The notes beneath the pieces are model-generated. The model saw nothing but the letters and a program-made list of their open reading frames with translations, searched no databases and was not told the origin of the DNA. 64,000 nucleotides of DNA from Pseudomonadota bacterium (lineage in GTDB: Bacteria > Desulfobacterota > Desulfovibrionia > Desulfovibrionales > Desulfovibrionaceae). Positions 6,242 to 16,031 of this stretch are shown here, in pieces (within the stretch, counting starts at the first letter, position 1; the number at the start of each line of letters is the position of its first letter). The DNA lies in the NCBI GenBank assembly GCA_018816865.1, contig JAHIUW010000016.1, forward strand, positions 124,001 to 188,000. The letters are read 5' to 3'. The position numbers were made by a program, and so were the translations under genes.

Positions 6242-6276
6242 CACGCCTCGCAACCGATACTGATCGACCACAAGAC

Positions 6277-6297
6277 TCCCCTTAGGGGGCCTTTTCA
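6277..6297 (+). terminator. Weak terminator between convergent genes
   Basis: A short CCCC-TTA-GGGG hairpin followed by CCTTTTC lies after the HD-GYP gene, at the stop of the convergent lipoprotein gene. The stem is only 4-5 bp. Confidence 0.35.
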
Positions 6298-7089
6298 TGC
6301 CCCTCGCGCAGAAACCCTGTAGATCCTGCCCTGCCGGGTACAGAAAAACAGCGCCCCATCCCGATCACAGCCCAGGCCCGTCACATCCTGCCCATCGGGG
6401 ATCGAAATCCTGCCAAGCCTGCTCCCAAGCCGGGTGCAGATGCCCTGGTTCTCCCGGTCCATGATGTATTCCGTGCCGGACGGGGCCACAGCCAATGTCA
6501 GGCCGGGCATCCCTGGACCAGAGGCAGACGCCGAGGCAACCTCCCGTACCGGAATCGCGCGCGCGACGCAGGCGGTTGCACGACCCGAGACCGCGCGAAC
6601 GGCGCCCCCGGGATTCCCCTGGCGCTCCACGACCACCCGCAGCCTTCCATCCCGGCCCAGGCGCAACACCCGACCCCGAGCGCCCTCGAAGATCAACAGC
6701 CCCCCGAACCGTTCGGCCAACAGGCCCTGCGGCTCACGCAGCCCCGCAGCCACGACCATCCGCTCACCCCGGGGACCGATGCGCAAGACCTCGCCCCGGG
6801 AGCGCGAGACCACATGCACCCTGTTGTCCCGGTCCACGGCCAGTCCGGCAAGTTGTTCAATATCCGAAGCCAGGACCGCGTGTTCGCCGCCCTGACCCAG
6901 CACCAGCACACGGCCCGTTCCGGCCTCGGCCACGTACAGCCGCCCCCGACCGTCAAAGCCCAGGCCGCACGGAGACTCGAAGCCTTCGGCCACGAGCACG
7001 GGCCCCTCGGCCCTCGTTTCCGTGCATCCCAACACCGCCAGGGCGCTGATCACTGCCAGCATTCCAATGGCCCATCCTTGTCTGCGCAT
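6295..7089 (-). CDS. Putative lipoprotein with NHL/beta-propeller-like repeats
   Basis: 264 aa from the chosen ATG at 7089, which has GGGGG just upstream; a longer frame to 7119 adds ten residues. The N terminus is a lipoprotein signal (positively charged MRRQ, hydrophobic core, lipobox LAVLGC), so export and lipidation are expected. The mature part has repeated blades of the form GLGFDGRGRLYVAEAGTGRVLVL, GLAVDRDNRVHVVSRSRGEVLRI and GLGCDRDGALFFCTRQGRIYRV, as in NHL/SMP-30-type propellers. About four to five blades are recognisable, fewer than a full six-bladed propeller. Ligand and function are unknown. Confidence 0.7.
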   Translation of the reverse strand: MRRQGWAIGMLAVISALAVLGCTETRAEGPVLVAEGFESPCGLGFDGRGRLYVAEAGTGRVLVLGQGGEHAVLASDIEQLAGLAVDRDNRVHVVSRSRGEVLRIGPRGERMVVAAGLREPQGLLAERFGGLLIFEGARGRVLRLGRDGRLRVVVERQGNPGGAVRAVSGRATACVARAIPVREVASASASGPGMPGLTLAVAPSGTEYIMDRENQGICTRLGSRLGRISIPDGQDVTGLGCDRDGALFFCTRQGRIYRVSARGA

Positions 7090-7148: not shown

Positions 7149-7163
7149 CTGTTCATTGAACAG
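7149..7163. promoter_or_regulatory. Perfect 7+1+7 palindrome upstream of the MocR-type gene
   Basis: CTGTTCATTGAACAG is perfectly symmetric about a single T and lies about 50 bp ahead of the regulator start, in the divergent spacer with the lipoprotein gene. Position and symmetry suggest an operator. It also resembles SOS-type boxes (CTGT-N-ACAG), but with a 7-bp rather than 8-bp core. Confidence 0.55.
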
Positions 7164-7210
7164 ATACAAAATTACACAATAGCAACCTTAACAAACATCG
7201 ACACTCCACT

Positions 7211-8641
7211 ATGCCAAACACGATCCAGCACTATCAGTACAAGAAGATTGAGGAACATGTCCTGAACCTCGTGGAGTCGGGGGTCCTGCAACCAGGTCAG
7301 CGTCTGCCCTCGCTCAGGAAGATGGCCACCAGCACCAGGGTCAGCGTACCCACCGTGGCCCAGGCCTATGCGGAGCTGGAAAGCCGAGGCTTGCTTGAAT
7401 CACGCGAGCGATCGGGTTTCTATGTCAGCCTGGACTACAAACGTCTGCCCGCCCCCAGCCTGTGCCCCAGGGCCAAGCCCGGACAGATGGACATGAGTCG
7501 CCCAGCCCTGTTGGAGGCGGCACTCAAATCCTGCCACAGCAACGTCTGCGACCCCATGAACCGCTACTACCCGGACCAGTCCCTGCTGGCGGGGCACTGT
7601 CTGGGCAAGATCCTACGTTCCGTGATCCTGGAGAACCCCGTTCGGGCGGCGTCCAACGTCCCCCCCCAGGGTTTTATCGAGTTGCGCAAGCAGATCGCCC
7701 TGCGCTGCATGAACGCCGATCTGGCCGTGTCGCCGGATGAGGTCGTGGTGACCCCGGGCACCATGAGCGGCATCGCCGCCCTGCTGGCCTGCATCACCCG
7801 CCCGGGAGACGCGGTGCTCATCCAGTCCCCGGCTTTCATCCTCTATTTGCGGGTCATTGAGACCCTGGGCCTGCGCGCCATCGAGATCCCCTCGTGTCCA
7901 CAGAACGGCATCCCCGTGCAGCACGTAGCCGACGCCATCCGCGACTTCGACGTCAAGGCCTGCCTGCTGATCCCCAATTTTCACATGGACGGCAGCCTGA
8001 CCCCGGACGAGGCCAAACGGCGCATCGTGAAGATGCTGACTGACAAGAACATCCCCCTGCTGGAGGACGACGTTTACGGCGAGTTGTATTTCGGCCAGGA
8101 ACGGCCCAGTCTGTTCAAGACCTTCGACACCACTGGCCTGGTGGCCACGGCCTCGTCCCTGACCCGGACCATCGCCCCGGGCTACCGCCTGGGCTGGCTG
8201 CTGCCCGGGCGCTTCAAGGACCAGGTCCTGGCCTACATGGCCATGACGGACTCCCGCCCTGCCACCCCGATCCAGCTTGCCCTGGCCGAATTCCTGCGCA
8301 AGGGGGAGTTCGAGAAGCACATGAAGGGCCTGCGCGCAGCCATGGCGTTGTCCATGGCCCGCATGCAGTGCGAAGTCGGGCGACGCTTCCCCGAGGGCAC
8401 CCAGGTCTCGCGGCCCCAAGGAGGCTTCTACCTCTGGGTCCAGATGCCCAGCCAGGTGGACTCCAAGGATGTCTTCCTGCGGGCCAGGGACAAAGGTGTG
8501 GTGATCTTTCCCGGAAGCCTGCTGTCCTTTTCCGACACCTTCAAAAACTGCATCCGCATCAACTGCCGTGGGGTCTGGAACGACAAGATCCGCGAAGCCC
8601 TGGGGGTTCTGGGCGGCATCGTCACGGAGCTGGCTGGATAG
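7211..8641 (+). CDS. MocR/PdxR-type regulator: GntR wHTH fused to an aminotransferase-like domain lacking the PLP lysine
   Basis: 476 aa. Residues 1-75 form a GntR-type winged helix (QRLPSLRKMATSTRVSVPTVAQAYAELESRGLLESRERSGFYV). Residues from about 110 form a fold-type I aminotransferase domain, with the conserved NP-type and DDVYGELYF regions. In this family the PLP Schiff-base lysine lies in S-x-x-K-T-x-A-P-G. Here the motif reads S-L-T-R-T-I-A-P-G, with Arg at residue 319 (codon CGG at 8165-8167). The rest of the motif, including the following R-L-G-W, is intact. The protein may therefore bind another ligand, or PLP without an aldimine. The start ATG has a weak upstream ribosome site. Targets are unknown; adjacent genes are candidates. 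Confidence 0.88.
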   Translation: MPNTIQHYQYKKIEEHVLNLVESGVLQPGQRLPSLRKMATSTRVSVPTVAQAYAELESRGLLESRERSGFYVSLDYKRLPAPSLCPRAKPGQMDMSRPALLEAALKSCHSNVCDPMNRYYPDQSLLAGHCLGKILRSVILENPVRAASNVPPQGFIELRKQIALRCMNADLAVSPDEVVVTPGTMSGIAALLACITRPGDAVLIQSPAFILYLRVIETLGLRAIEIPSCPQNGIPVQHVADAIRDFDVKACLLIPNFHMDGSLTPDEAKRRIVKMLTDKNIPLLEDDVYGELYFGQERPSLFKTFDTTGLVATASSLTRTIAPGYRLGWLLPGRFKDQVLAYMAMTDSRPATPIQLALAEFLRKGEFEKHMKGLRAAMALSMARMQCEVGRRFPEGTQVSRPQGGFYLWVQMPSQVDSKDVFLRARDKGVVIFPGSLLSFSDTFKNCIRINCRGVWNDKIREALGVLGGIVTELAG

Positions 8642-8965: not shown

Positions 8966-9892
8966 TCAGCGCCCCAGGGCCAGACGCCCGGCCGCCAGAT
9001 CGAACAGTGCGTGGCCCACGGACTTGAAGAGCACCGGTCTGTTGCCCGTCTGGCCCTGGGCCGGCCCATCACTGCCAAGGCCTGCGTTCAGGACATCACC
9101 CAGCAGCAGCACGCCATCCCAATCCACATCGGCCTGAATCAGGTCGCCCGCCTCGTGCCGGGTGTCCACGGTATCCACCACCACACGACAGGCGCGGACC
9201 AGCCGGGCGGGAATCTCCGCCGCCTGCGGCGTGAAGGCCCCCACGGCCGCGATGAAAGTCCCCGGAGTAACGTCCTCCGACAGCACCGGGGTATTGCTGG
9301 TGGTGGCCGTGACCACCAGCGAACAATCTCGCAGCACCGCTGCGGCAGAAGTCGCCACCGTGGCCTCGATGCCCAGAGTCCGGGCAAACTCGGCCAGGGC
9401 CACAGCGCTCTGCTCCGAACGCGCACAGCAAAAGACCCGATGAATACCGAGCCCATGGGCAAAGGCCTCCAGATGGGCCCGGGCCTGGACCCCAGCCCCC
9501 ACCACCAGCAGCGGACCCTCCTCGTGCGGGGCCAGGGTCTGCGCCGCCAGCAGAGACAAGGCCGCCGTGCGCCGCGAGGTCACGGTGGGACCGTCGAGGA
9601 TGCCCAGGCGCTCGCCGCTTGCGGCATCCATGACCACCATTTCGCCCTGGATGAGCGGCAAGCCCCGCGCCGGATTGCCCGGATGCACTGTCACCAGCTT
9701 GGTCACGGCAACGGCCTCGTCCGCGGCGGGCATCACCAACAGGACCCCGCCCCCGGGCAAGGGGCTGTGGATGCGCGCAGGGGCCGTCAGTTCGCCGCGC
9801 GCCATGCGGCGCAAAACACCAGCCAGGGCCTCGGCCAGTTCGGGATACGGCAACAGCTTCGCTGTCTCGGCAGCGGAATAGGTCCTCATCAT
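8966..9892 (-). CDS. Ornithine cyclodeaminase / mu-crystallin family protein
   Basis: 308 aa. The family contains NAD(P)-dependent ornithine cyclodeaminases, alanine dehydrogenases and ketimine reductases. Visible are the N-terminal substrate region (KLVTVHPGNPARGLPLIQGEMVVMDAASG), the family signature near DGPTVTSRRTAALSLLAA, and the Rossmann loop VVGAGVQARAHLEAF. A late TPGTFIAAVGAFTPQAAEIP segment is typical. Two adjacent ATGs (9892 and 9889) follow GGAGAG; the second has better spacing. The exact substrate cannot be read from the sequence. A repeat copy abuts the 3' end and two further copies lie upstream. Confidence 0.85.
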   Translation of the reverse strand: MMRTYSAAETAKLLPYPELAEALAGVLRRMARGELTAPARIHSPLPGGGVLLVMPAADEAVAVTKLVTVHPGNPARGLPLIQGEMVVMDAASGERLGILDGPTVTSRRTAALSLLAAQTLAPHEEGPLLVVGAGVQARAHLEAFAHGLGIHRVFCCARSEQSAVALAEFARTLGIEATVATSAAAVLRDCSLVVTATTSNTPVLSEDVTPGTFIAAVGAFTPQAAEIPARLVRACRVVVDTVDTRHEAGDLIQADVDWDGVLLLGDVLNAGLGSDGPAQGQTGNRPVLFKSVGHALFDLAAGRLALGR

Positions 9893-14659: not shown

Positions 14660-14831
14660 GGCTGCTCAATAAGGGTCGAGTGCTAGAAGCCAGGAAAAAT
14701 TGAAATCGACAGCTCATAGCCGTTGGGCGAATTTTCGAGCCTTACGGATATGGAGAGCAGCGCTGTATTAATCATACGCGAGATTTCGATTTTCCCGCAG
14801 CGACAACGCAATCGGCCGTTTGTCAGCAGCC
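14660..14831 (+). repeat. Interspersed palindromic repeat, copy F
   Basis: Inner arms GGAAAAATTGAAATCG and CGAGATTTCGATTTTCC pair. It carries the long insert 'CATAGCCGTTGGGCG...TTACGGATATGGAGAGCAG' but not the ACACCTAAGG module. Outer arms GGCTGCTCAATAAGG and the complement of CCGTTTGTCAGCAGCC pair. The copy ends within 10 bp of the ribosome-binding site of the downstream aminotransferase gene. Confidence 0.8.
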
Positions 14832-14846
14832 GCTGAAGGAGAAAAC

Positions 14847-16031
14847 ATGTCCCTCAACTTCGCCAAACGCATGCAAACCGTGCCCCGCTCGTTCATCCGC
14901 GAGATCCTCAAAGTCACCCAGGACCCCAGCGTGATCTCCTTTGCCGGTGGCCTGCCCAACCCCAGGCTGTTCCCCTGCGGCCCGCTGGCCGAGGCCGCCC
15001 GCGCCGTCATCGCCGATGAAGGTGCCGAAGCCCTGCAGTATTCCACCACCGAGGGGCACCCCCCGCTACGCGAGTGGATCGCGGCCCGCTACCGTGAACG
15101 CGACGGGCTGAATGTCACAGCCGATGACATCCTCATCACCACCGGCTCGCAGCAGGCCCTGGACCTGATGGGCAAGGTGCTCATCGACCCCGGCGACACC
15201 GTGGTCATGGAATCTCCGGGCTATCTGGGAGCCATCCAGGCCTTCTCCATCTTCGAACCCAACTACGTGGCCGTGCCCCTGACCGAGGACGGCCCGGACC
15301 TGGACGCCCTGGAACGCGCCCTGGCGGGGAATCCCAAGCTGTTCTATGCGGTCACCAGTTTCCAGAACCCCTCGGGCCTGACCTATTCGGACGAGAAACG
15401 CCGCGCCGTGGCCGAGCTGCTCAAGGGCACCGATGTCGTCTTTGCCGAAGACAACCCCTACGGCGATCTGCGCTTTGCCGGAGAACGGCAAAGCCCGCTG
15501 TTTGCCTACCGCCCCGAGAACAGCCTGCTTATGGGTTCCTTCTCCAAGATCGCCGCCCCGGGCTTCCGTATCGGCTGGGTCGTGGCCGAGCCCGACCTGC
15601 GTCACAAGCTGGTCACCGCCAAGCAGGCCTCAGACCTGCACACCTCCACCGTTTGCCAGCGCGTGGTGCATCGCTGGCTCCTGGACAACGATCTGGACGA
15701 GCACATCGCCAAGATCTGCGATTGCTACGGGACCCAGTGCCAGGCCATGCGCGACGCCGCCAAGGAATTCTTCCCCGAGGAAGTCACCCTGACCCGCGCC
15801 GAGGGCGGCATGTTCCTCTGGGCAGAGATGCCCGAGGGCTGCTCATCCATGAAGCTCTTCGACCTGGCCATCAAGGAGAAGGTCGCCTTCGTGCCCGGCA
15901 ACCCCTTCTATGTGGACGGCCGCGAAGCCAATACCCTGCGCCTGAACTATTCCAACGCCGCCCCCGAAACCATCACCGAGGGCATGAAACGCCTCGGGCA
16001 ATGCATGAAGGAATACATCGCCGGCCGGTAG
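14847..16031 (+). CDS. PLP-dependent aminotransferase (class I/II, aminoadipate-aminotransferase-like)
   Basis: 394 aa from ATG 14847, preceded by GAAGGAGAAAAC. Fold-type I enzyme without a regulator domain. It shows the N-terminal VISFAGGLPNPRLFP block, LQYSTTEGHPPLREW, the VTSFQNPSGLTY region containing the substrate-loop Asn-Pro, and the intact PLP lysine motif GSFSKIAAPGFRIGW. This resembles LysN/2-aminoadipate and multi-substrate aminotransferases. The amino acid handled is not readable from sequence. A terminator follows. Confidence 0.88.
   Translation: MSLNFAKRMQTVPRSFIREILKVTQDPSVISFAGGLPNPRLFPCGPLAEAARAVIADEGAEALQYSTTEGHPPLREWIAARYRERDGLNVTADDILITTGSQQALDLMGKVLIDPGDTVVMESPGYLGAIQAFSIFEPNYVAVPLTEDGPDLDALERALAGNPKLFYAVTSFQNPSGLTYSDEKRRAVAELLKGTDVVFAEDNPYGDLRFAGERQSPLFAYRPENSLLMGSFSKIAAPGFRIGWVVAEPDLRHKLVTAKQASDLHTSTVCQRVVHRWLLDNDLDEHIAKICDCYGTQCQAMRDAAKEFFPEEVTLTRAEGGMFLWAEMPEGCSSMKLFDLAIKEKVAFVPGNPFYVDGREANTLRLNYSNAAPETITEGMKRLGQCMKEYIAGR

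What the first reader, a model, noticed from the sequence alone, without database searches (positions are those of the whole stretch)
8162..8170. MocR-type regulator with the PLP lysine replaced by arginine
The motif expected as S-x-x-K-T-x-A-P-G reads S-L-T-R-T-I-A-P-G, Arg319 from codon CGG at 8165-8167. All flanking residues are conserved, so alignment is unambiguous. Arginine cannot form the internal aldimine, so the domain cannot be a normal transaminase or PLP-aldimine sensor. It may be a repurposed ligand-binding domain.
Basis: partly seen in the sequence, partly recalled or inferred. Interest (0 to 1): 0.6.

Follow-up and report, generated by a model that had tools for sequence, protein, structure and literature searches.

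The report
Gene regulator missing its vitamin-B6 lysine
This is a bacterial gene regulator built like the vitamin-B6-sensing MocR proteins whose cofactor-anchoring lysine is arginine; the swap is kept in the only other species of the genus examined, so it is a real, selected paralogue that must work without the usual covalent vitamin-B6 switch, although what it senses, if anything, is unknown.

Summary
ORF 7211-8641 (+, 476 aa) is a MocR protein (GntR wHTH + aminotransferase fold) with Arg319 (CGG, 8165-8167) where the PLP lysine belongs. It is not an error. The only other genome of the genus held encodes the same protein (87% identical), with Arg from a different codon (AGA) in the same setting. 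The gene is under purifying selection (dN/dS 0.10). All 37 relatives aligned have Lys. In 297 genomes of the class, the Arg motif occurs only in these two; the Lys motif occurs in 113. The Lys-type family is a MocR divergent from azlCD with a conserved operator. The same genome keeps such a Lys paralogue, and the Arg gene carries a diverged copy of the operator, beside a lipoprotein gene seen only in this genus among the loci held. Best reading: a duplicated, neofunctionalised MocR that keeps DNA binding but cannot form the internal aldimine. Whether it senses a non-covalent ligand or is ligand-blind is undecided. "Cannot be a PLP-aldimine sensor" is too strong: free PLP or an external aldimine is not excluded. 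A second, independent Arg-MocR lineage exists (Bradyrhizobium, a MAG). New variant of a known kind.

The parts
7211..8641 (+). MocR-type regulator with Arg in place of the PLP lysine (476 aa)
   Evidence: ORF and Pfam GntR + Aminotran_1_2; AF2 model pLDDT 89.6, pTM 0.87, GabR top Foldseek hit
7238..7426 (+). GntR winged helix-turn-helix, residues 10-72
   Evidence: Pfam PF00392 E 7.8e-16; dN/dS 0.054 for residues 1-75, the most constrained part
7658..8605 (+). fold type I aminotransferase-like domain, residues 150-465
   Evidence: Pfam PF00155 E 1.9e-28; Z up to 47 to aminotransferases, 39 to GabR; dN/dS 0.11 for residues 131-476
8165..8167 (+). Arg319 (CGG) at the position of the PLP-binding lysine (GabR Lys312, AspAT Lys258)
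   Evidence: AGA (Arg) in genus-mate
7976..7993 (+). N-F-H-M-D-G (residues 256-261): conserved N-F-N-N-P-D-G with the PLP-contacting Asn replaced by Met and the Pro deleted
   Evidence: N and P are 37/37 in Lys-type relatives; lesion shared with genus-mate
8237..8239 (+). Met343 in place of a lysine invariant in all 37 Lys-type relatives
7149..7194 (+). predicted operator: CTGTTC-ATT-GAACAG palindrome overlapping ACAGATACA-N15-AACCTTAACA, the family MocR operator with changes specific to this gene
   Evidence: Core matched with 0 mismatches at -51; same motif upstream of 37 Lys-type homologues; 2 of 1060 shuffled sequences match; only two sites in own genome within 3 mismatches
6295..7089 (-). 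divergently transcribed predicted lipoprotein with repeats resembling NHL/SMP-30 propellers; candidate target sharing the intergenic operator
   Evidence: 56% identical orthologue at the same place in the genus-mate, not found next to the other family members examined; no Pfam hit; lipoprotein call from the leader ...LAVLGC, by eye

Best explanation
A duplicated, neofunctionalised MocR regulator. A Lys-bearing MocR of the kind that sits divergent from azlCD and has a CTGT...TACAGATACAG...ATAACAG operator was duplicated. One copy (still in the genome, contig C6) kept the Lys, the operator and azlCD. The other, in the window, lost the PLP lysine (Arg319) and the PLP-site Asn-Pro, then became fixed under purifying selection. 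Shown: the substitutions, their conservation in two species, the purifying selection, the shared operator core and the changed neighbour gene. Inferred: it still binds DNA as a dimer through its wHTH and controls its own promoter and the divergent lipoprotein gene, with no internal aldimine. Leading guess for sensing (about 50%): a small molecule bound non-covalently in the old substrate/PLP pocket between Arg449, Arg326 and Arg319, such as an amino or keto acid, or PLP/PMP. The alternative (about 30%) is that it is locked and ligand-blind.
For: Arg319 is kept in both species although the codon changed CGG/AGA; dN/dS 0.10 overall, wHTH 0.054, AAT 0.11. Other lesions are shared. The pair sits on a long stem (1.32 changes/site) inside the Lys-type clade (95/99), with short tips 0.05-0.1: a burst, then constraint. 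The Lys paralogue is in the same genome and next to azlC. The operator core matches exactly upstream of both paralogues and nowhere else in the own genome within 3 mismatches. The lipoprotein neighbour is conserved in the genus-mate. The model keeps the MocR/aminotransferase fold at high confidence.
Against: No functional data. Only two species of the genus are held, so conservation rests on one divergence. The attachment point of the pair within the Lys clade is unresolved, so duplication inside this genus versus an older origin or transfer is open. Constraint on the AAT domain could come from dimerisation alone. Several positions conserved in the operators of Lys-type genes differ in this one, so binding of the Arg protein to it is predicted, not shown.
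Confidence: 0.6

Rival explanations
1. Ligand-blind locked regulator: the AAT-like domain is only a dimerisation scaffold, and the protein permanently represses (or antagonises the Lys paralogue at shared operators).
For: EnuR Lys302His cannot hold PLP, stays dimeric and is a constitutive repressor (PMC8739950). Operator cores of the two paralogues are the same.
Against: Pocket residues Asp286, Tyr289, Ser316, Arg326 and Arg449 are retained, which a scaffold does not need; the operator in front of the Arg gene has diverged.
Confidence: 0.3
2. PLP or PMP is still used, bound non-covalently; a PLP-amino-acid external aldimine is the sensed species.
For: Asp286, Tyr289, Ser316, Arg326 and aromatic Phe209 are kept. 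Position 250 of GabR (Phe) shows the Asn contact is dispensable in MocRs (PMC6677901). From memory, not checked here: the AspAT K258R mutant still binds cofactor and substrate.
Against: EnuR Lys302His loses PLP. Loss of the lysine, Asn-Pro and Ser318 together points away from keeping the cofactor.
Confidence: 0.15
3. Decaying paralogue on its way to a pseudogene.
For: Several catalytic-site positions are lost at once.
Against: Intact frame, dN/dS 0.10, conserved operator and synteny in two species.
Confidence: 0.05
4. Sequencing or assembly error.
For: None.
Against: Independent genome with Arg from a different codon.
Confidence: 0.01

Closest known systems
Lys-type MocR divergent from azlCD in the same order (own-genome copy G000:C6:10621-12030; no characterised member found)
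   Same: Architecture, 38-45% identity, operator core ACAGATACA-N15-AACCWTAACA, divergent promoter arrangement
   Different: Has Lys, N-N-P-D-G and K343, and is next to azlC; the window gene has none of these
GabR (Bacillus subtilis)
   Same: wHTH + fold type I AAT domain; top Foldseek hit; Asp279 equivalent kept
   Different: Lys312 forms the internal aldimine and GABA the external one; here Arg319
PdxR / EnuR MocR regulators
   Same: wHTH + AAT architecture; NF052282 PdxR is the best NCBIfam model, below cut-off (202 vs 320 bits)
   Different: PLP lysine essential; EnuR Lys strictly conserved in 278 proteins (PMC8739950)
GabR-like MocRs with S-F-S-R-S in Bradyrhizobium (L063, L064) and a proteobacterial MAG (L065)
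   Same: Natural Lys to Arg at the same position, conserved across 58-82% identity
   Different: Other MocR subfamily (25% identity); the Q-F-P-T-G motif (equivalent of NPxG) is kept, the C-terminal substrate Arg appears lost

Membership tests
MocR subfamily of GntR regulators | N-terminal GntR winged helix-turn-helix | tested here: met
   PF00392, E 7.8e-16
MocR subfamily of GntR regulators | C-terminal fold type I aminotransferase-like domain | tested here: met
   PF00155, E 1.9e-28; AF2 model, Z 39 to GabR
MocR subfamily of GntR regulators | PLP-binding lysine, stated to be conserved across all MocR clusters (PMC6677901) | tested here: not met
   Arg319
MocR subfamily of GntR regulators | Asp contacting the pyridine nitrogen | tested here: met
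   Asp286 invariant
MocR subfamily of GntR regulators | Phosphate/carboxylate Arg residues (AspAT R266, R386) | tested here: met
   Arg326 and Arg449 invariant
MocR subfamily of GntR regulators | Operator made of direct and/or inverted repeats in a divergent promoter | tested here: met
   Predicted operator 7149-7194; binding itself not tested
MocR subfamily of GntR regulators | Binds PLP / responds to an effector | not testable with these tools
   Needs purified protein
PdxR equivalog (NF052282) | Score above curated cut-off | tested here: not met
   202.5 vs 320 bits
Active class I/II aminotransferase | Catalytic lysine | tested here: not met
   Arg319

The most novel reading that the evidence does not exclude
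A MocR switch that has been freed from PLP chemistry: Arg319 takes part in a new non-covalent effector site, and the protein has split the ancestral operator with its Lys paralogue, so that the two copies form a PLP-dependent/PLP-independent regulatory pair. The window operator has a perfect inverted repeat (CTGTTC-ATT-GAACAG) and weakened direct boxes. This could mean that the Arg protein is fixed in the conformation that holo-PdxR adopts (holo prefers inverted, apo direct repeats; PMC5320631).
Probability: 0.25. Interest if true: 0.65.

Novelty: new variant of a known kind. Interest (0 to 1): 0.45.

Why it matters
MocR regulators are the textbook case of an enzyme fold turned into a switch through PLP-aldimine chemistry, and how far they can drift from that chemistry is open. 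A natural, selected Lys-less MocR in the same genome as a Lys-bearing paralogue, with both predicted operators in hand, gives a clean pair for asking whether the aldimine is essential for MocR signalling. A second Arg lineage in Bradyrhizobium says this has happened more than once.

Tried and rejected
Close relatives by protein in genome contigs: no hits, so that collection gave no names. Sequencing error: rejected by the second genome with AGA. Pseudogene: rejected by dN/dS. Arg common in the family: rejected, 37/37 Lys and 113 vs 2 genomes. Chance hits in the collection-wide Arg-motif scan: L066 has a stop inside the motif and is chance; L067 (Variovorax) is a MocR fragment in a short, broken frame. 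Literature: no description of natural Lys-less MocRs found in the held library, but Bramucci et al. 2011 and Tramonti et al. 2018 were not seen there. A link of MocR to azlC was not found in the literature. Side-chain geometry could not be measured because model coordinates are not exposed; statements on pocket residues rest on alignment. The aminotransferase at 14820-16031 was considered as a partner, but it is 6 kb away.

Full report
Observation. The 476-residue ORF 7211-8641 (+) has a GntR wHTH (10-72) and an aminotransferase class I/II domain (150-465). Its best NCBIfam model is PdxR, below the curated cut-off.

Not an error, not common. The one other genome of the genus held, G001, has the orthologue at the same place (87% identity; the aligned flanking DNA within the first 16 kb of the window is 74-90% identical in pieces). 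It reads S-L-T-R-T-V-A-P-G, with Arg from AGA. CGG and AGA differ at two bases and can be joined by synonymous steps only, so Arg itself appears to be maintained. In the family (288 genomes) the next best matches are 42-45% identical, and all 37 relatives aligned have Lys. A degenerate DNA motif for S-[LF]-[ST]-R-[ST]-x-x-P-G-x-R-x-G occurs in 2 of 297 genomes of the class (the two of this genus); the same motif with Lys occurs in 113. The pattern covers only part of the codon space (serine as TCN at the first position), so these are relative, not absolute, frequencies.

A second lesion. The conserved N-F-N-N-P-D-G is N-F-H-M-D-G: the Asn that contacts PLP and the next Pro are 37/37 in the Lys-type proteins, and here are Met and a gap. 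S318T, K343M, Y209F and E186S are further shared departures. Thirty of 123 conserved columns depart. Kept are Asp286, Tyr289, Ser316, Arg326 and Arg449 (AspAT D222, Y225, S255, R266, R386; this numbering equivalence is from established knowledge of the fold). GabR itself has Phe at the Asn position (PMC6677901), so that loss alone does not exclude PLP.

Selection and history. Nei-Gojobori dN/dS between the two species is 0.10 (wHTH 0.054, AAT part 0.11), against 0.066 for the Lys paralogue pair and 0.069 for a flanking gene. The tree puts the Arg pair inside the Lys-type clade (support 95/99; midpoint root) on a stem of 1.32 changes per site with short tips; the exact attachment is unresolved. 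This is the pattern of a duplicate that changed fast and then settled. The parsimonious ancestor had Lys.

The Lys-type family and its operator. The own-genome Lys copy lies at C6:10621-12030 and is divergent from an AzlC-type gene (identified from its sequence). AzlC is encoded next to most Lys-type homologues fetched (the 47 loci counted include repeat fetches of the two genus genomes). Upstream of 37 Lys-type genes there is a conserved element, TG-n-n-A-n-C-A-GTACAGATACAG ... ACCATAACAG-n-T. Its core, ACAGATACA-N15-AACC[AT]TAACA, is found without mismatch at -51 of the Arg gene in both species; up to four mismatches were reached in 2 of 1060 shuffles. In each genome the only perfect sites are in front of the two paralogues, and none has 1 or 2 mismatches. 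Own genome: no further site within three mismatches. G001: two weak 3-mismatch sites. In the Arg gene's operator, bases nearly invariant in the others have changed (G10 to A, A29 to T, T37 to C) and the left part is a perfect inverted repeat CTGTTC-ATT-GAACAG (CTGCTC in G001). The promoter region is shared with a predicted lipoprotein gene (start about 7089, minus strand), 56% identical in G001 and not seen beside the other homologues.

Structure. The AF2 model is confident (pLDDT 89.6, pTM 0.87). Foldseek's top hit is GabR 4N0B, and PdxR 7ZLA is in the list. VIA-align gives Z 46-47 to aminotransferases of the LysN/AGT group and 39.3 to GabR. The Foldseek rmsd of 26-28 A to full-length GabR most likely reflects a different arrangement of the two domains; the domains themselves match. 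The fold is therefore predicted to be intact.

Mechanism. Internal-aldimine formation at this position is excluded by chemistry. Published precedent: EnuR Lys302His has no PLP, stays dimeric and represses constitutively (PMC8739950). PdxR without PLP prefers direct repeats and with PLP inverted repeats (PMC5320631). Both show that a MocR without bound PLP can bind DNA. The best reading is a paralogue that keeps DNA binding and dimerisation, controls itself and the lipoprotein gene, and either senses a non-covalent ligand (my preference, about 50%) or is locked (about 30%). The retained pocket arginines and Asp favour some ligand; nothing here shows one.

Wider occurrence. A scan of 84,980 species genomes for the Arg motif gave five stretches. 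Three are GabR-like MocRs from Bradyrhizobium (two, one cut by the end of the stretch held) and a proteobacterial MAG, S-F-S-R-S-[LI]-G-P-G, with Arg codons CGC/CGT, 58-82% identical to each other and 25% to the window protein. They represent an independent Lys to Arg event. One is a broken MocR fragment (Variovorax) and one is chance.

Verdict. A real and conserved exception to a residue described as conserved in all MocR clusters, with a testable paralogue pair. It is a new variant of a known kind, not a new kind.

Noticed in passing
L033 4757-7064 and about 40 loci (L003-L062): A MocR family in this order sits divergent from azlC with a strongly conserved operator CTGTTAcCAGTACAGATACAG...ACCATAACAG; no literature link between MocR and azlC was found, so this looks like an undescribed amino-acid-export regulon.
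   Followed up: partly
L063 around 4578, L064 around 317, L065 around 2990: Independent Lys to Arg MocRs of the GabR-like type in Bradyrhizobium and a MAG, Arg conserved across 58% identity; the C-terminal substrate-carboxylate Arg also appears lost.
   Followed up: partly
L067 2072-2111: Variovorax MocR fragment with S-F-S-R-C-L-A-P-G in a short broken frame, probably a pseudogene.
   Followed up: no
window 14820-16031: Stand-alone aminotransferase that scores best against MocR/YczR/PdxR models although it has no helix-turn-helix domain.
   Followed up: no
window 6242-6320 versus L031 7704-9440: The genus-mate carries about 1.7 kb of extra DNA between the HD-domain gene and the lipoprotein gene.
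   Followed up: no
window 8966-9892 (-): Delta1-pyrroline-2-carboxylate reductase-type gene (ornithine cyclodeaminase family) convergent with the regulator, 70% identical in the genus-mate at the same place.
   Followed up: partly
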